A program made the translations under genes and the position numbers. This document shows positions 13,851 through 26,601 of a stretch of DNA of 52,443 nucleotides, one piece after another. The DNA comes from Rubrivivax sp. (GTDB taxonomy: Bacteria; Pseudomonadota; Gammaproteobacteria; Burkholderiales; Burkholderiaceae_C), in contig JAJAZC010000034.1 in assembly GCA_026785885.1 (NCBI GenBank), positions 1 through 52,443 on the forward strand. Reading direction: 5' to 3'. Numbering within the stretch: position 1 is the stretch's first letter; each line of letters begins with the position of its first letter. The notes beneath the pieces were generated by a model. The model was not told the origin of the DNA, ran no database searches, and worked only from the letters and a program-made list of their open reading frames with translations.

Positions 13851-14081
13851 TCAACGCGCCGACGTGCGGGCGTACTCGTTTTGCCCCTGCGAGCGCGCTT
13901 TCAGCTGCGCCTCCCAACTGGCGTTGTCGCCGGCTTTCCAGCCCGGTGCCGTGTGGGTGCCGGTGTTGCCGGCCGAAGGATCGACGTCGGCCTTGCGGGT
14001 GCCGCTGGACTGTGGCTTCTCGGCACAGGCCGCCAGCAGCAGCACAACGGCCAGCAAGACCGGCAGCCGGGCCGAGCTCAT
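13851..14081 (-). CDS. Small lipoprotein in FDH operon
   Basis: 'MSSARLPVLLAVVLLLAACAEKPQ' lipobox; start overlaps the beta subunit stop. Confidence 0.65.
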   Translation of the reverse strand: MSSARLPVLLAVVLLLAACAEKPQSSGTRKADVDPSAGNTGTHTAPGWKAGDNASWEAQLKARSQGQNEYARTSAR

Positions 14082-14734
14082 GACTTCTTGACCTCGGGCT
14101 GGCTACTGTTGCCGTTGCCGCTGCCGGTGCCTTTGCCGTTGCCCGTGATCGGCTTGCCGTAGGCCGTGCCCCAGCCCCAGACCTCGCTGCCCTTGCCGCG
14201 TGTCAGCACGCGGGTGCGGAAGATGTCGGCCACAACATCACCGTCACCGCCCAGCAGCGCCTTGGTGCTGCACATCTCGGCGCAAGCCGGCAGCTTGCCT
14301 TCGGCCAGCCGGTTGCGGCCGTACTTTTCGTTCTCGGCCGCGCTGCCGTTGGCTTCAGGCCCGCCCGCGCAGAAGGTGCACTTGTCCATCTTGCCGCGCA
14401 GGCCGAAGGCTCCGTTGCTGGGGAACTGCGGCGCGCCGAAGGGGCAGGCGTAGCTGCAGTAGCCGCAGCCGATACAGGTGTCCTTGTCATGCAGTACGAC
14501 GCCTTCGGCGGTGCGATAAAAGCAGTCCACCGGGCACACCGCCATGCAGGGCGCGTCACTGCAGTGCATGCAGGCCACGCTGATACTTTTCTCGCCAGCC
14601 ACGCCGTCGTTGAGCGTTACCACGCGACGCCGGTTGACGCCCCACGGCACCTGGTGCTCTGCCTTGCAGGCGGTGACGCAGCCGTTGCATTCGATGCAAC
14701 GCTCGGCGTCGCAGATGAATTTCATGCGTGCCAT
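14078..14734 (-). CDS. Formate dehydrogenase beta subunit, 4Fe-4S ferredoxin-type
   Basis: 'MARMKFICDAERCIECNGCVTACKAEHQVPWGVNRRRVVTLNDG...' with multiple CxxCxxC motifs. Confidence 0.95.
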   Translation of the reverse strand: MARMKFICDAERCIECNGCVTACKAEHQVPWGVNRRRVVTLNDGVAGEKSISVACMHCSDAPCMAVCPVDCFYRTAEGVVLHDKDTCIGCGYCSYACPFGAPQFPSNGAFGLRGKMDKCTFCAGGPEANGSAAENEKYGRNRLAEGKLPACAEMCSTKALLGGDGDVVADIFRTRVLTRGKGSEVWGWGTAYGKPITGNGKGTGSGNGNSSQPEVKKS

Positions 14735-14782
14735 TGATGGCTCCTGAGACGTGAACTCGAGCCGCCCCGAGGCAGGCAACGG

Positions 14783-14825: not shown

Positions 14826-17789
14826 TCATGCCGCCCGCTCGACCTGGCAAACGGTGGTCTTGGTTTCTTGCATCATGGTCACGCTGTCGTAGCCGTAGGT
14901 AGTGGCCGTGTTGACCGCCTCACCGCGAACGATCGGCGCCGCGCCCTTCGGGTAGTGCGCCAACATGTCCACGCCTTGCCAGTGGCCGGCAAAGTGGTAG
15001 GGCATGAAGGCGGTGTCGCTGCCCACGCGCTCCGTCACTTGTGCCTTGACCTTGATGCGCGCCCCGGTGGGCGTGCTGACCCAGACGTCCTCGCCGTTGC
15101 GGATGCCGCGGTCGTTGGCTGCTTTCGGGTTGATCTCGATGAACATGTGCTGCTGCAGCTCGGCGAGATAGCGGTTAGAGCGTGTCTCGTCGCCGCCGCC
15201 TTCGTACTCCACCAGGCGGCCGCTGGTCAGGATGATCGGAAACTTCTGGCCGATGTCCTTGTTCTTCTCCTGCACCGACTTGAACAGCGTAGGCAGCCGC
15301 CAGAACGCCTTGCGGTCGTCATGGGTCGGGTACTTCGCCACCAGCTCTGGGCGCGTCGAATACAAAGGCTCGCGGTGCTGCGGAATCGGATCGGGGAAGT
15401 TCCACACTACCGCGCGCGCCCGTGCGTTGCCGAAGGGATGGCAGCCGTGGTTTTTCATGGCCACGCGGATGATGCCGCCGGAGCTGTCGGTCTTCCAGTT
15501 CTTGCCTTCGGCCTTCTTCTGCTCGTCTTCGGACAACTCGCCCCACCAGCCCAACTTCTTCAGCAGCAGGTGATCGAATTCCGGATAGCCGGTGGTCAGG
15601 TCGCAGCCCTTGGAATGTGAGCCGTCGGCCGCCAACAGCGACTGGCCGTCACGCTCGACGCCGAAGTTGGCGCGGAAGTTACCGCCGCCATCCATCACGT
15701 GCTTGGAGGTGTCGTACAGGATGTGCGTGCCCGGGTGCTTCATCTCGGGCGTTCCCCAACAGGGCCAGGGCAGGCCGAAGTAATCGCCGTCCAGCTGGTA
15801 GCCGGTCTCCTTGTCGATGCCACCTTTGGCACGCAGCGTGTTGACGTCGAAGACGTGCATGTTGCGCATGTGGGCCTTCAGCCGCTCCGGGCTCTGCCCG
15901 GTGTAGCCGATGGTCCAGACCGAGCGGTTGATTTCGCGCAGGATGTCCTCCGGCAAGGGCTCGTCCAGACCCTTGACCTTCTGCATCTTGTAGTTCTTGA
16001 CCAGCTGCTCGCCGAAGCCCAGCTTTTGCGCGAGCTGGTACATGATCATGTGGTCACTGCGCGATTCGAACAGCGGGTCGATGACCTTCTCGCGCCACTG
16101 CAACGACCGGTTCGATGCGGTGACAGAGCCACTGGTCTCGAACTGCGTACATGCCGGCAGCAGGTACACGGCGCGCTTCGGGTTCAGGTCTTCGGCCATG
16201 CCCGGCATCGCGGCCATGGCTGCGGTGGCCGATGGGTACGGGTCCACCACCACCAGCAGATCCAGCTTGTCCATGGCCTTCTTGAGGTCGAGGCCACGGG
16301 TCTGCGAATTGGGTGCGTGGCCCCAATAGAACATGCCGCGCAGGTTGCTGTCCTGGTCGATGAGCTCGTTCTTCTCGAGCACGGCATCGAACCACCGCGA
16401 GACAGTCAGGCCCGCCTTGCTCATCATGCCCGGCGCGTACTGCTTCTTCATCCACTCGAAGTCCACGCCCCAGGCAGCGGCAAAGTGCTTGAACGATCCC
16501 TCGGAAAGGCCGTAGTAGCCAGGCAACGAGTCCGGGTTGGAGCCGACGTCGGTGATGCCCTGCACGTTGTCGTGGCCGCGGAAGATGTTGGCGCCACCGC
16601 CACTCTTGCCCACGTTGCCCAGCGCTAGCTGCAGCAGGCAGGAGGCCCGCACCATGGCGTTGCCGATGGTGTGCTGGGTGTGACCCACGCACCAGACCAG
16701 CGTGCTGGGCCGGTTCTCGGCCATCGTCTTGGCAACCTGCAAGCACTCGGCCTCGGTGACGCCCGAGGCCTCGAGCACCTTGTCGGGCGTCCACTTGGCG
16801 AGCACCTCTTCGCGCACCTTGTCCATCGCCCAGACGCGGTCGGCGATGTACTGCTTGTCTTCCCAGCCGTTGTTGAAGACGTGGTACAGCACGCCATAAA
16901 GAAACGGAATGTCGGCCCCCGAGCGCATGCGCACGTACTGGTCGGCCTTGGCTGCCGTGCGGGTGAACCGGGGGTCCACCACGATCATCTTGCAGCCCTT
17001 CTCCTTGGCATGCAGCATGTGCAGCATCGACACCGGATGTGCTTCGGCAGCATTGCTGCCGATGTACATCGCAGCCTTGCTGTTCTGCATGTCGTTGTAC
17101 GAGTTGGTCATCGCACCGTAGCCCCACGTATTCGCCACACCGGCGACTGTTGTGGAGTGGCATATTCGTGCCTGGTGATCGCAGTTGTTACTGCCCCAGA
17201 AGGACATCCACTTTCTGAGCAGGTACCCCTGCTCGTTGTTGCTCTTGCACGAGCCGACGATGAAGACGCTGTCGGGGCCGCTTTCGCGCTTCAGCTCCAG
17301 CATGCGGGCGCTGATCTCGTCCAGCGCCACATCCCAAGTGATGCGCTCGTACTTGCCGTTCACGAGCTTCATCGGGTACTTCAGCCGGAACTCGCCGTGC
17401 GCGTTGTCGCGCACCGCCGCACCTTTGGCGCAATGCGCACCCAGGTTGATGGGCGAGTCGAACACCGGCTCCTGGCGCACCCAGATGCCGTTTTCGACCA
17501 CGGCGTCGATGGCACAACCCACCGAGCAGTGGGTGCAGACCGTGCGCTTGACTTCGACCTTGGCACCTCCCGCAATGGCTGCGCCCGCCTTCTCGACAGC
17601 GTCGGCCTTGCGTACCAGCGTGAGTTGCGATGCGGCGATGCCCACCCCGAGGCCCAGCCCGGAGCGGCGCAAAAACTTGCGCCGGTCCATCGTGGGCAGC
17701 GCGCGGGCCAAGCCCCGCGCCAGACCGTCGACCAGCGTCCGCGTCGGCGGTGCCGCCCCGTGCGCGGGCGACGTGCGTGTCAAGAGCAT
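14826..17789 (-). CDS. Formate dehydrogenase alpha subunit (Mo/W-bisPGD), candidate selenoprotein with Sec encoded by TGC at 17160-17162
   Basis: TAT signal (MDRRKFLRRSGLGLGVG), CTHCSVGC 4Fe-4S site, 'DHQARICHSTTVAGVANTWGYGAMTN' catalytic motif where E. coli FdnG has U. Confidence 0.96.
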   Translation of the reverse strand: MLLTRTSPAHGAAPPTRTLVDGLARGLARALPTMDRRKFLRRSGLGLGVGIAASQLTLVRKADAVEKAGAAIAGGAKVEVKRTVCTHCSVGCAIDAVVENGIWVRQEPVFDSPINLGAHCAKGAAVRDNAHGEFRLKYPMKLVNGKYERITWDVALDEISARMLELKRESGPDSVFIVGSCKSNNEQGYLLRKWMSFWGSNNCDHQARICHSTTVAGVANTWGYGAMTNSYNDMQNSKAAMYIGSNAAEAHPVSMLHMLHAKEKGCKMIVVDPRFTRTAAKADQYVRMRSGADIPFLYGVLYHVFNNGWEDKQYIADRVWAMDKVREEVLAKWTPDKVLEASGVTEAECLQVAKTMAENRPSTLVWCVGHTQHTIGNAMVRASCLLQLALGNVGKSGGGANIFRGHDNVQGITDVGSNPDSLPGYYGLSEGSFKHFAAAWGVDFEWMKKQYAPGMMSKAGLTVSRWFDAVLEKNELIDQDSNLRGMFYWGHAPNSQTRGLDLKKAMDKLDLLVVVDPYPSATAAMAAMPGMAEDLNPKRAVYLLPACTQFETSGSVTASNRSLQWREKVIDPLFESRSDHMIMYQLAQKLGFGEQLVKNYKMQKVKGLDEPLPEDILREINRSVWTIGYTGQSPERLKAHMRNMHVFDVNTLRAKGGIDKETGYQLDGDYFGLPWPCWGTPEMKHPGTHILYDTSKHVMDGGGNFRANFGVERDGQSLLAADGSHSKGCDLTTGYPEFDHLLLKKLGWWGELSEDEQKKAEGKNWKTDSSGGIIRVAMKNHGCHPFGNARARAVVWNFPDPIPQHREPLYSTRPELVAKYPTHDDRKAFWRLPTLFKSVQEKNKDIGQKFPIILTSGRLVEYEGGGDETRSNRYLAELQQHMFIEINPKAANDRGIRNGEDVWVSTPTGARIKVKAQVTERVGSDTAFMPYHFAGHWQGVDMLAHYPKGAAPIVRGEAVNTATTYGYDSVTMMQETKTTVCQVERAA
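17121..17159 (-). promoter_or_regulatory. Candidate bSECIS-like hairpin immediately 3' of the catalytic TGC codon
   Basis: On minus strand: TGC CAC TCC ACA ACA GTC GCC GGT GTG GCG AAT ACG TGG GGC. Upper stem UCGCC/GGCGA (5 bp), GGUGU loop, lower stem CUCCAC/GUGGGG (6 bp incl. one U-G); 18 nt from codon to apical loop. Confidence 0.55.
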
Positions 17790-18380: not shown

Positions 18381-20312
18381 TTGATCATCGGCACTGCAGG
18401 TCACATCGACCACGGCAAGACCTCGCTCGTCAAGGCGCTGACTGGCATCGACGCTGACCGGCTGAAAGAGGAAAAAGAGCGCGGCATCACCATCGACCTC
18501 GGCTTCGCTTATCACGCGCTGCCTGACGGTGAGGTGCTGGGCTTTGTCGATGTGCCCGGCCACGAGAAGCTGGTGCGCAACATGCTGGCCGGAGCCACCG
18601 GCATAGACCACGTGATGCTGGTCATCGCCGCCGACGACGGCCCGATGCCGCAGACGCGTGAGCACCTGGCCATCCTGCACCTGTTGGGTCTGTCGCAGGG
18701 CGTGGTGGCCTTGAGCAAGTGCGACCTCGTCGGGCCAGAGCGGCTGGCTGCGGCCCTGGCCGAGGTGCAGCAGCTGCTGGCCGGCAGTGTGCTGGCCGCT
18801 GCACCCGTGCTGCCCGTGTCATCGCTCACCGGCCGGGGTATCGCTGAACTAGCAGCGCACTTGGCACGTTCGCGGGTGCCGCTGCCAGACGGTGCGGCAA
18901 GCGGCCAATTTCGGCTGGCCATCGACCGCAGCTTCACGCTGGCCGGCATCGGCACGGTGGTTACGGGTACCGCAGTGGCCGGGCAGGTTGCAGTGGGCGA
19001 CAAGTTGATGCTTTCGCCGAGCGGGCAGGCCGTGCGCGTGCGCGGCCTGCACGCTCAGAACCACCGCGCCGACAGCGGCCACGCCGGCCAACGCCTGGCG
19101 TTGAACCTGGCGGGCGTCGAGAAAAACGGGGTCCGCCGCGGCGACTGGCTGCTGGCCGAGGCCCTGCACGCGCCGACCCAGCGCATAGCCGCGCGGCTGC
19201 AGGTGCTGGCCAGCGAGCCGCGGCCGCTGGCACACCGCACGCCGCTGCACCTGCACCTGGGTGCACAAGACGCCGGCGCGCGCGTCGTGCTGCTGGAAGG
19301 CAAGGCGATCGAGCCCGGCGCCAGCGCCTGGGTCGAGCTGGAGCTCGAACGCCCGATCGGCGCGCTGCACGGCGACCGTTTCATCGTGCGCGACCAGTCG
19401 GCTTTGCGCACCGTGGGCGGCGGCAGCGTCACCGATGCCTTTGCACCCGACAGCCGGCGCCACCGCACGGAGCGCGTGGCATCGCTGATGGCGCTCGACC
19501 AACCCACGCCCGCCGCCGCACTGGCCGCCGCAATGGCGCTGGAGCCCGCCGGCGGCATCGACGCCCAAGCCTTTTGTACGCAGTGGAACCTTACCGAAGG
19601 CCAGCGCCAGGCGCTGCTGGCCGCGCTGCCGCACCGCGTGGTGCAGGGCGCAGGGGACGGCGGCCACGCGCTGCTGTTTGCGCCGGCACAGATGGATCGC
19701 TACAGCGCCGCGCTGGCCGCACACCTCGGCGCCTGGCACCGCAAGCAACCCGACAGCCCGGGGCTGACACAAGAGCAGCTGCAGCGCGCCGTCCGCGACA
19801 GGCCCGCCAACGCGGTGTTTGCGCTGCTGCTGCGCCAACTCGTGAAGGACGGCGTGCTCAAGCGCAGCGGTGCCCAGCACGCGCTGCCCGGGCACGACCC
19901 TTCACTGCAGGGCGTGGACAAACAGATCTGGGAACGTCTGAAGCCCTGGCTGGACGAAGGTGGCATTCACCCGCCGCGGTTCAGCGACCTGTTGCTGCGC
20001 GACCGCAGCCTGCGCAAGGACCAGTTGCTGCGCGTGCTGGAGCGGCTGCAGCGCATGGGCGCGGTGCACGCGGTCGGGGCCGAGTACTTCATCCTAACGC
20101 CGCACCTGCTGGACCTGGCGACCCGGGCCTACCTGCTGACCGAGGCCGACGCCAACAGGCGGCTCAACGTCAAGGAGCTGCGCGAGAGCACCGGCATCAG
20201 CCGGCACCTGTCGGTGCCGCTGGTAGAGTATTTCGATCAGATCGGGCTGACCAAGCGTGATGAGGTCGGGCGCCATTTCAGGCGCGACCCGCGCAAGGCG
20301 CTTGTCACCTGA
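18381..20312 (+). CDS. selB: Selenocysteine-specific elongation factor SelB
   Basis: '[43 protein letters not shown]' and C-terminal winged-helix region; TTG start. Confidence 0.97.
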
Positions 20313-20328: not shown

Positions 20329-20425
20329 GGAGGAGGATCGACTCCCGGTGGGGCGTCCGGTCTGCAAAACCGGGTGGGGCTGCCCTGCGGTCCCAGGTGG
20401 GTTCGACTCCCACCCCCCTCCGCCA
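20329..20425 (+). tRNA. selC: tRNA-Sec with non-canonical GCA anticodon (20364-20366), CCA encoded
   Basis: Between selB and selA; 97 nt; 8-bp acceptor (one A-C mismatch), 6-position D stem (one A-G mismatch), anticodon arm CCGGT-CTGCAAA-ACCGG, long variable arm GGGGCTGC-CCT-GCGGTCCC, T arm GTGGG-TTCGACT-CCCAC, G discriminator, CCA; lines up with E. coli selC apart from U34 to G34 at the anticodon. Confidence 0.9.
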
Positions 20426-20457: not shown

Positions 20458-21888
20458 ATGACCACTGCCAGCCTGCGCCCGCCGGCTACGGACAAGCTGC
20501 TGGACAGTGACGCGATGCGTGCACTGGCCTTGCAGCACGGCCGCGTCGCGCTGTTGGCGGTGGCGCGCGAAGCGCTCGGGCACTGGCGCGCGCAGACGCC
20601 GCAACAGGCCTTCGAGCCGGCACCGTTCGAGGCCCGCTGCAGCGCCGCGTTGCAGCAGCAGGCAGCACCCGCTTTGCGGCCGGTGTTCAACTTGACCGGC
20701 ACCGTGTTGCACACCAATCTGGGCCGCGCGGTGATGGCGCCCGAGGCCATAGCGGCCGTCGTGGCCGTGATGCGGGGCGCGTCCAACCTCGAGTACGACC
20801 TGGCCGCTGGCGGGCGCGGCGACCGCGACGACCATGTCGACGGGCTACTGAAGGAACTCACCGGCGCCGAGGCCGCCACCGCAGTCAACAACAACGCCGC
20901 GGCGGTGCTGCTGGTGCTGGCAGCCCTGGCCGATCGCAAAGAAGTGCCGGTGTCGCGCGGCGAGCTGATCGAGATCGGCGGCGCCTTTCGCATCCCCGAC
21001 ATCATGCGCAGGGCCGGCGCCAAGCTGGTCGAGGTCGGCACCACCAACCGCACCCATCTGCGCGACTTCGAAGAAGCCATCGGCCCGCGCACGGCGCTGG
21101 TGATGAAGGTGCATGCCAGCAACTACGCCATCCAGGGCTTCACGGCCAGCGTGCCGGTGACTGAGCTGGCCGCGTTGTGCAAGGCCCGTGGCCTGCCGTT
21201 TGTCGAAGACCTGGGCAGCGGCACGCTGGTGGACCTGACGCGCTGGGGCCTGCCGGCCGAACCGACGCCAGCGCAGTCCATCTCAGCCGGCGCCAACGTC
21301 GTCACCTTCAGCGCCGACAAGCTGCTGGGCGGCCCGCAGGCCGGCCTCATCGTCGGCGACAAGCTGTTGATTCAGAGGATCAAGAAGCACCCGCTGAAGC
21401 GCGCGCTGCGGCTGGACAAGATGACGCTGGCAGCGTTGGAAGCCACGCTCAAGCTCTACCGCGACCCCGACCGCCTAGCGCAGCGCCTGCCCACGCTGCG
21501 CTTGTTGACGCGTACTGAAGCCGACATCCGGCTGCAGACCGAACGCCTGGCACCGGCGCTGGCGCAGGCGCTCGGCACGCGCTGCCAGGTGCAGGTGCTG
21601 GCCTGCCGCAGCCAAATCGGCAGCGGCTCGCTGCCGGTGGACCGGCTGCCCAGTGCTTGCCTGGCCATCGGTGCTGCAGCTGGCGGCAACGGTGTCGTCA
21701 AGGCTGGCAGCAAGCGCGCCGGCAGCCTGCCCGATCGCTTGGCCGAAGCGATGCGCGCGCTGCCGCTGCCGGTCATCGGCCGTATCGAAGACGGCCAGCT
21801 GCGGTTGGACCTGCGCTGCCTCGACAGCGCCGACGCCGAAGCGGCTTTCGCCGAGCAGCTGCCGCTGCTGGCGCAAGCAACGCTTTAA
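20458..21888 (+). CDS. selA: L-seryl-tRNA(Sec) selenium transferase
   Basis: '[19 protein letters not shown]...[14 protein letters not shown]...[15 protein letters not shown]'. Confidence 0.97.
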
Positions 21889-25959: not shown

Positions 25960-26601
25960 ATGAGCATGACCGCGCAATCCATTGACCTGGCCACCGACGG
26001 CCTGCAGGCCGACAGCGAAGAACTCGCGCGTGCCGAGCTCTACGGCCTGTTGTCGCGGCTGTGGCTGGCGCCGCCCGATGCGGCTTTGCTGCAGCAGTTT
26101 GCGCACGCGGTGACGCAGGCGCCCGAACGCGGCGCGCTGCTTGAAGCTCCTTGGCAGGCACTGGTGCATGCACTGCGCCAGACCACGCCCGAGGCTGCGA
26201 CGGCCGAACATCAGGCGCTGTTTCACGGCGTCGGCAAGCCCGAGGTCTTTGCTTACGGCAGCTACTACCTCACCGGCTTTCTCAATGAAAGGCCGCTGGC
26301 TGCGCTACGCACGGACCTGGCCGCTCTGGGCCTTGCACGCGACACCGCGGCGCTGGAAACCGAGGACCACATCGCCTATCTGTTCGAGGTCATGCGCTAC
26401 CTGATTGCGGGTGACGACGTGGGCATCAGCAACCTCGAGCAGCAGCGCCGCTTCTACCGCAGCCACCTGCAGCCTTGGGGACACCAGTTATGCGATGCCG
26501 TGCTCGCGCAGCCGCGCGCCGAAGTCTGGCGCGCCGTGGCCGTGTTCACGGCGGCCTTTCTGGCGATCGAGACGCAAGGCTTCGACTTGCTCGAAACATG
26601 A
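25960..26601 (+). CDS. TorD-family molybdoenzyme chaperone
   Basis: 'LARAELYGLLSRLWLAPPDAALLQQF...EAATAEHQALFHGVGKPEVFAYGSYYLTGFLNERPLAALR'. Confidence 0.88.
   Translation: MSMTAQSIDLATDGLQADSEELARAELYGLLSRLWLAPPDAALLQQFAHAVTQAPERGALLEAPWQALVHALRQTTPEAATAEHQALFHGVGKPEVFAYGSYYLTGFLNERPLAALRTDLAALGLARDTAALETEDHIAYLFEVMRYLIAGDDVGISNLEQQRRFYRSHLQPWGHQLCDAVLAQPRAEVWRAVAVFTAAFLAIETQGFDLLET

What the first reader, a model, noticed from the sequence alone, without database searches (positions are those of the whole stretch)
20329..20425. tRNA-Sec with a Cys (GCA) anticodon between selB and selA
The 97-nt tRNA has tRNA-Sec hallmarks (8-bp acceptor, long D stem, long variable arm, G discriminator) and lies 16 nt after selB and 32 nt before selA. 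Its anticodon loop is CTGCAAA (20362-20368), giving GCA where canonical tRNA-Sec has TCA (E. coli loop CTTCAAA). One U34 to G34 change would retarget it from UGA to UGC/UGU. The anticodon stem is perfectly paired. Reassignment of Sec to non-UGA codons, including Cys codon UGU in Aeromonas salmonicida, has been reported (Mukai et al. 2016, from memory). I cannot tell whether this anticodon or lineage was already covered there.
Basis: partly seen in the sequence, partly recalled or inferred. Interest (0 to 1): 0.96.

Follow-up and report, generated by a model that had tools for sequence, protein, structure and literature searches.

The report
Selenocysteine tRNA retargeted to cysteine codon
In a group of Rubrivivax-like bacteria the tRNA that normally inserts selenocysteine at a stop codon has switched to a cysteine codon, and its target, one codon of a formate dehydrogenase gene marked by a conserved RNA hairpin, is found in this same window; such recoding was known from a few other bacteria, but here UGA, UGC and UGU versions of one gene can be compared.

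Summary
At 20329-20425, between selB and selA, lies a bona fide tRNA-Sec (Rfam RF01852, 65.9 bits; G73) with anticodon GCA. It is not a sequencing error or a decaying copy: 22 species-level genomes and 31 metagenome contigs carry it, with G73 kept in all 31 distinct full-length tRNAs. Divergent from selB, at 14826-17789(-), is an FDH3-type formate dehydrogenase whose catalytic codon is TGC, followed at canonical SECIS spacing by a hairpin. In all 22 genomes chosen by their tRNA, 14 codons (208-221) around that TGC are frozen at synonymous sites, apart from two loop wobbles, and include the rare codons CGA-ATA. The corresponding codons vary freely in Cys-type orthologues of genomes without this tRNA (z about -7). 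Metagenomes hold the same gene and hairpin with TGT, next to tRNA-Sec(ACA), and with TGA. Codon and anticodon match in every pair found. Best reading: SelB and the SECIS direct Sec to one UGC, while canonical tRNA-Cys reads all others. Sec insertion itself is inferred, not shown. Recoding of Cys codons is already known (Mukai 2016), so this is a new member of a known kind. The UGA/UGC/UGU series nested inside Cys-FDH3 is the unusual part.

The parts
20329..20425 (+). tRNA-Sec gene (selC) with anticodon GCA (20364-20366), G73 and encoded CCA
   Evidence: ARAGORN, Rfam RF01852 65.9 bits; pair counts in 31 distinct relatives
18381..20312 (+). selB, Sec-specific elongation factor (643 aa) with GTPase, beta-barrel and SECIS-binding winged-helix domains
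   Evidence: TIGR00475 387.8 bits (cut-off 242); PF25461, PF09106, PF09107
20458..21888 (+). selA, L-seryl-tRNA(Sec) selenium transferase (476 aa)
   Evidence: TIGR00474 571.7 bits (cut-off 268); PF03841
14826..17789 (-). FDH3-type molybdopterin formate dehydrogenase alpha subunit, the inferred selenoprotein (987 codons)
   Evidence: next to the FDH3 beta subunit
17160..17162 (-). catalytic codon 210, TGC, inferred to be recoded to Sec
   Evidence: position equivalent to the TGA of fdnG/fdoG-type genes in L075, L080-L082; TGA or TGT at the same codon in metagenome orthologues
17122..17157 (-). SECIS-like hairpin: lower stem CUCCAC/GUGGGG, internal loop, apical stem UCGCC/GGCGA, loop GGUGU (codons 211-223)
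   Evidence: fold; frozen synonymous sites; energy controls
17163..17168 (-). conserved rare codon pair CGA-ATA just upstream of the recoded TGC (function unknown)
   Evidence: 22/22 in carriers; CGA is 2.0% of Arg and ATA 1.5% of Ile codons elsewhere in the same genes
14078..14779 (-). FDH3 beta (Fe-S) subunit
   Evidence: NF038355 335 bits (cut-off 240)
25960..26601 (+). TorD-like chaperone, probably for maturation of the Mo enzyme
   Evidence: NF003442 weak match (39 bits, below cut-off 132); inference from context

Best explanation
This is a Sec-insertion system whose Sec codon is the Cys codon UGC. SerRS charges tRNA-Sec(GCA), SelA converts Ser to Sec with selenophosphate from SelD, and SelB carries Sec-tRNA-Sec(GCA) only to a UGC followed by the SECIS in the mRNA of the FDH3 formate dehydrogenase 0.6 kb away. 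There it competes with Cys-tRNA-Cys on EF-Tu instead of with RF2. All other UGC/UGU codons are read by ordinary tRNA-Cys. Shown here: the tRNA, the anticodon, selA/selB/selD, the TGC at the catalytic site, the SECIS-like constraint, and the codon-anticodon matching across relatives. Inferred: actual Sec insertion, the Sec:Cys ratio, and the fail-safe consequence that selenium shortage would give full-length Cys enzyme rather than a truncated one.
For: (1) tRNA-Sec identity: RF01852 65.9 bits and G73 in 31/31 distinct relatives. (2) Complete machinery: selA and selB, selD in the own genome on contig C212, 423 bits, and over the cut-off in 21 of 22 genomes searched. (3) TGC at the catalytic codon, with the loop GGU at codon +7 and a U in the middle of codon +5, as in the UGA genes fdnG/fdoG. 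(4) In 22 carrier genomes picked by their tRNA and not by this sequence, codons 208-212 and 215-221 are each one single codon. In 34 Cys-type FDH3 genes most of the corresponding third positions vary. The excess constraint is the deepest in the gene: z -7.5, -7.1 and -6.5 for three window sizes, lowest value elsewhere about -0.1 against -0.36. ACC, 53% of Thr codons in these genes, never occurs at the two variable loop codons (0 of 44). (5) Co-occurrence in 401 family genomes: SECIS pattern in 6, namely all 5 genomes with an intact tRNA-Sec(GCA) plus one 61%-complete MAG, while 190 genomes have FDH3. (6) Codon-anticodon matching: 22 genomes and 31 contigs UGC/GCA, 2 contigs UGU/ACA, none mismatched; UGA versions also exist. 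(7) A separate canonical tRNA-Cys(GCA) in eight carriers.
Against: No protein or selenium data. A UGC read as Cys would give the same protein sequence apart from that residue. The RNA fold alone is only moderately unusual (rank 191 of 2928 windows; 3.6% of random synonymous versions fold as well), so the case rests on constraint and covariation, not on energy. The lower stem is not kept in the distant UGA homologue L270. tRNA-Cys was not found in the own MAG (89.9% complete) with an exact pattern. The carriers are one clade, so the counts are not independent.
Confidence: 0.9

Rival explanations
1. It is a selC*-type tRNA-Cys: a tRNA-Sec-shaped tRNA charged with Cys by CysRS that delivers Cys.
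For: Anticodon GCA is a CysRS identity element; selC*-type tRNAs exist in Nitrospirae, Firmicutes and others, and appear in the same scan ending in ..TCCA (PMC7609411).
Against: selC* tRNA-Cys carry U73 by definition (PMC7609411); all 31 distinct tRNAs here carry G73. The tRNA lies between selB and a full-length selA. Delivering Cys to a UGC that tRNA-Cys already reads would need no frozen SECIS, and the UGA and UGU versions of the same gene would be unexplained.
Confidence: 0.04
2. The FDH3 UGC is plain Cys. The tRNA-Sec(GCA) serves another gene or is a relic, and the frozen stretch in FDH3 is some other RNA element, for instance a pause or regulatory site.
For: Cys-type FDH3 with TGC and no hairpin is widespread (190 of 401 family genomes have FDH3). 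The CGA-ATA pair and the invariant TAC-GGT codons downstream are not explained by the canonical SECIS alone.
Against: The frozen stretch has the position and loop of a SECIS, occurs only with this tRNA, and the one codon free to change within it is the recoded one, TGC/TGT/TGA, matching the anticodon where the tRNA is seen.
Confidence: 0.05
3. Sequencing error, pseudogene or decaying locus.
For: Acceptor A6.C and D-stem A13.G mismatches in this copy.
Against: The same anticodon in 22 genomes and 31 metagenome contigs; the mismatches are shared by relatives; stems, loops and G73 otherwise kept.
Confidence: 0.01

Closest known systems
Sec recoding of the Cys codon UGU by tRNA-Sec(ACA) in Aeromonas salmonicida (Mukai et al. 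2016, Angew Chem; not held here, known through PMC5756416, PMC10778597, PMC8124441)
   Same: tRNA-Sec anticodon variant matched to a Cys codon that is followed by a SECIS; selA/selB/selD machinery
   Different: Here UGC with GCA, in an FDH3-type enzyme of Rubrivivax-like Burkholderiales, plus UGU/ACA and UGA forms of the same orthologous gene. PMC8124441 says UGC is also among the known cases; whether this clade was listed in 2016 could not be checked
Canonical bacterial tRNA-Sec(UCA)/UGA system of formate dehydrogenases (fdnG/fdoG/fdhF)
   Same: tRNA-Sec fold, G73, SelA, SelB, SelD, SECIS directly after the codon with GGU loop at codon +7
   Different: Sec codon UGC instead of UGA; competitor is tRNA-Cys instead of RF2; target is FDH3 instead of FDH-N/O/H
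UAG-Sec with tRNA-Sec(CUA) in Geodermatophilaceae (PMC5330540, citing Mukai 2016)
   Same: natural anticodon swap with a matched codon in FDH
   Different: stop codon rather than sense codon
selC* tRNA-Cys (PMC7609411)
   Same: tRNA-Sec-like structure, GCA anticodon
   Different: U73 and Cys identity; here G73
Cys-type FDH3, e.g. FdhA of PDB 9vap (closest solved chain)
   Same: orthologous fold and active-site motif DH.ARICHSTTVAGVANTWGYGA
   Different: no SECIS constraint in the Cys-type Burkholderiales genes compared; no tRNA-Sec(GCA)

Membership tests
tRNA-Sec | tRNA-Sec covariance model above gathering score | tested here: met
   65.9 bits against 47
tRNA-Sec | G73 discriminator, long acceptor/T stack (8+5), long D stem and variable arm | tested here: met
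   G73 in 31/31; stems counted; positions 6 and 8 of the acceptor are mismatched in part of the relatives
tRNA-Sec | UCA anticodon | tested here: not met
   GCA; a variant anticodon is the point of the finding and is accepted for this family (PMC5330540)
Sec recoding at Cys codons (Mukai-type) | anticodon complementary to a Cys codon used at a Sec site | tested here: met
   GCA and TGC at FDH3 codon 210; ACA with TGT in L299, L309
Sec recoding at Cys codons (Mukai-type) | SECIS right after the codon | tested here: met
   hairpin at canonical spacing, frozen synonymous sites z about -7; binding by SelB not tested
Sec recoding at Cys codons (Mukai-type) | selA, selB and selD present | tested here: met
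Sec recoding at Cys codons (Mukai-type) | Se found in the protein (75Se or mass spectrometry) | not testable with these tools
   needs a culture
selC* tRNA-Cys | U73 | tested here: not met
   G73 in 31/31
FDH3 formate dehydrogenase | FDH3 beta subunit partner and Mo-enzyme alpha subunit | tested here: met
   NF038355 335 bits; PF00384, PF01568, PF04879

The most novel reading that the evidence does not exclude
A Cys-type FDH3 regained Sec inside a Cys radiation, and its Sec codon then moved between UGA, UGC and UGU in step with the tRNA-Sec anticodon. With UGC/UGU the gene makes a mixed Sec/Cys enzyme whose ratio follows selenium supply, a fail-safe that UGA cannot offer. The clade would then be a natural record of how a codon is captured by a rare amino acid and passed on.
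Probability: 0.4. Interest if true: 0.82.

Novelty: new member of a known kind. Interest (0 to 1): 0.66.

Why it matters
Sense codons carrying two meanings by context are rare. Here one orthologous gene exists with UGA, UGC, UGU and plain-Cys versions in close relatives, with matching tRNAs where these are seen. That makes the order of codon capture, the competition between Sec-tRNA on SelB and Cys-tRNA on EF-Tu, and the benefit of Sec over Cys in one enzyme directly testable, in part with strains that carry names in public collections (Rubrivivax sp. A210, Piscinibacter aquaticus KACC 15278). It also shows that annotation tools call such genes tRNA-Cys and the selenoprotein an ordinary Cys protein, so the trait is invisible in databases.

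Tried and rejected
A first tRNA-Cys pattern had a wrong spacing and found nothing in any genome; the corrected one worked. Mukai 2016 itself (PMC4833512) is not held, so lineage-level priority is unchecked. Considered and rejected: selC* tRNA-Cys (G73), pseudogene or read error (recurrence), a second UCA tRNA in the own genome (none over the cut-off). A UGA fdnG/fdoG-type FDH was sought in the carriers as a possible conflict: none in the window's genome; one in G418, which has its own tRNA-Sec(UCA) on the same contig, and a C-terminal fragment in G416. RNA folding energy alone was judged too weak to prove a SECIS. The metagenome contigs were fetched with the hairpin as query, so they were left out of the constraint test. 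Direction of change within the Sec clade (UGA first, or UGC first with UGA as a reversal) is not settled: the tree puts UGA basal with support 83-90 only, and codon plus anticodon steps tie.

Full report
Observation. The window holds a single tRNA, 20329-20425(+), anticodon GCA at 20364-20366, which ARAGORN calls tRNA-Cys and Infernal scores as tRNA-Sec with 65.9 bits, full-length. It sits 16 nt after selB (18381-20312, TIGR00475 387.8 bits) and 32 nt before selA (20458-21888, TIGR00474 571.7 bits). SelB keeps the winged-helix domains that bind SECIS RNA in this family. selD is elsewhere in the genome (contig C212, 423 bits). No second tRNA-Sec passes the cut-off in the genome.

Not an error and not decay. 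A scan of one genome per species for tRNA-Sec-shaped genes with a non-U34 anticodon returned, besides selC*-type tRNA-Cys, a clade of Burkholderiales assemblies named Rubrivivax, Leptothrix, Aquabacterium, Piscinibacter and Azohydromonas with the same tRNA. With the family search and after removing duplicates this gives 22 genomes. In 31 distinct full-length tRNAs G73 is invariant, and anticodon, T and D stems are kept apart from a few A.G cells at one D-stem pair. Acceptor pairs 6 and 8 are mismatched in part of the set, the window's A6.C included. The fifty family relatives checked by ARAGORN outside this clade have UCA or no call.

The target. The gene divergent from selB, 14826-17789(-), is a Mo formate dehydrogenase alpha subunit next to an FDH3 beta subunit (NF038355). 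Its catalytic codon 210 is TGC, at the position where fdnG/fdoG-type genes of the same family have TGA. Downstream the RNA can form CUCCAC/GUGGGG around an apical UCGCC-GGUGU-GGCGA hairpin, with GGU at codon +7 and a U in the middle of codon +5, the places of the loop GGU and the bulged-U codon in the UGA genes compared.

Constraint test. In the 22 genomes, which were chosen by tRNA and not by this sequence, codons 208-212 and 215-221 are each one single codon: CGA ATA TGC CAC TCC .. GTC GCC GGT GTG GCG AAT ACG. In 34 Cys-type FDH3 genes most of these positions vary. Relative to the Cys set this is the strongest synonymous constraint in the gene, z -7.5, -7.1 and -6.5 for 14, 16 and 20 codons. 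CGA and ATA make up 2.0% and 1.5% of their families elsewhere in the same genes. Only the wobbles of codons 213 and 214 vary, and ACC, 53% of Thr codons elsewhere, never occurs there; they lie in or next to the predicted internal loop. Folding energy alone is less telling (mean -16.4 against -11.9 kcal/mol in Cys genes; 3.6% of random synonymous versions do as well).

Codon-anticodon matching. The SECIS pattern with any TGN occurs in 6 of 401 family genomes: the five with an intact tRNA-Sec(GCA) and one 61%-complete MAG. FDH3 itself occurs in 190. In metagenomes, 80 contigs with the hairpin have TGC 70, TGA 5 and TGT 5. Thirty-one TGC contigs carry tRNA-Sec(GCA). Two of the TGT contigs, L299 and L309, carry tRNA-Sec(ACA), confirmed by Rfam at 69 and 68.4 bits. 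Two TGA contigs, L307 and L314, share the whole context including CGA-ATA and are 78-79% identical in protein; L307 has selB divergent next to the gene as in the window. No mismatched pair was found. The MAG G418 has two systems, GCA with FDH3-TGC and, on another contig, UCA with an fdnG/fdoG-type TGA gene.

History. In a maximum-likelihood tree, FDH3 genes with the hairpin form one clade (support 98) nested among Cys-type FDH3. Within it UGA is basal (83-90) and UGU lies inside UGC (99). So Sec was most likely gained within a Cys radiation and the codon then changed. Whether UGA came first is open. In near relatives with UCA (G276, G251, G318) the same selB-selC-selA operon carries a solute-binding protein gene with an in-frame TGA instead.

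Mechanism. A GCA anticodon would therefore not misread other UGC codons, and a canonical tRNA-Cys(GCA) is present in eight carriers (not found in the own MAG with the exact pattern). At the FDH3 site the competitor is Cys-tRNA, so product without Sec should be full-length Cys enzyme, a form that exists on its own in relatives. This last step is inference.

What is known. Full texts at hand state that some bacteria use UGC/UGU with tRNA-Sec anticodon variants (PMC8124441), that A. salmonicida has tRNA-Sec ACA (PMC5756416), and that ten sense codons are recoded in nature including UGU (PMC10778597), all citing Mukai et al. 2016, which is not held. The finding is therefore a new member of a known kind. 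Its distinctive part is the matched UGA/UGC/UGU series in one orthologous gene. Whether the 2016 survey listed this clade could not be checked; searches for Rubrivivax or Burkholderiales with these terms found no such paper.

Noticed in passing
L126:87-180, L133:1391-1484, L148:4591-4683, L165:1629-1721, L181:5033-5126: tRNA-Sec genes with anticodon ACA (Cys UGU) and apparent G73 beside selB (and selA in three) in actinobacteria (Herbidospora, Nonomuraea, Planomonospora): a separate lineage of Cys-codon tRNA-Sec; its target genes were not sought.
   Followed up: partly
L068:5297-6892, L069:11241-12791, L070:5494-7113: In sister UCA operons a solute-binding protein gene directly upstream of selB has an in-frame TGA (..NAEG[NQ]W-TGA-VIDEPGPWGTGPFVL); the 42 nt from the TGA on are nearly identical in the three, so probably a selenoprotein with its own SECIS.
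   Followed up: partly
L391 (G418 contig 194) and L236 (G418 contig 30): One MAG with two tRNA-Sec: GCA with FDH3-TGC and UCA with an fdnG/fdoG-type TGA gene; either a true dual Sec code or a binning mixture.
   Followed up: partly
L392 (G403 contig 10), 9784-9878: G403 also has a second tRNA-Sec, UCA, beside a selB with 41% identity and no FDH nearby; target unknown.
   Followed up: no
L243 (G417 contig 80): A second FDH3 copy in a carrier genome is Cys-type with ordinary codons and no hairpin, an internal control for the constraint.
   Followed up: partly
window:17163-17168 and 17145-17150 region (-): The rare pair CGA-ATA before the recoded codon, and invariant TAC-GGT codons 224-225 after the hairpin, are conserved but not explained by a canonical SECIS.
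   Followed up: no
window:20257-21888: An open frame runs through the tRNA gene in the frame of selA, reminiscent of the selB/selC overlaps described in PMC8124441; probably incidental.
   Followed up: no
L240 (Piscinibacter aquaticus KACC 15278): FDH3 is spread over several reading frames, and selD is split in the same genome: assembly indels or real damage.
   Followed up: no
L090:2127-2223, L107:2401-2490: selC*-like tRNAs with GCA anticodon and U73-type ends lie right before a selB homologue in a Nitrospira MAG and a Deltaproteobacteria MAG.
   Followed up: no
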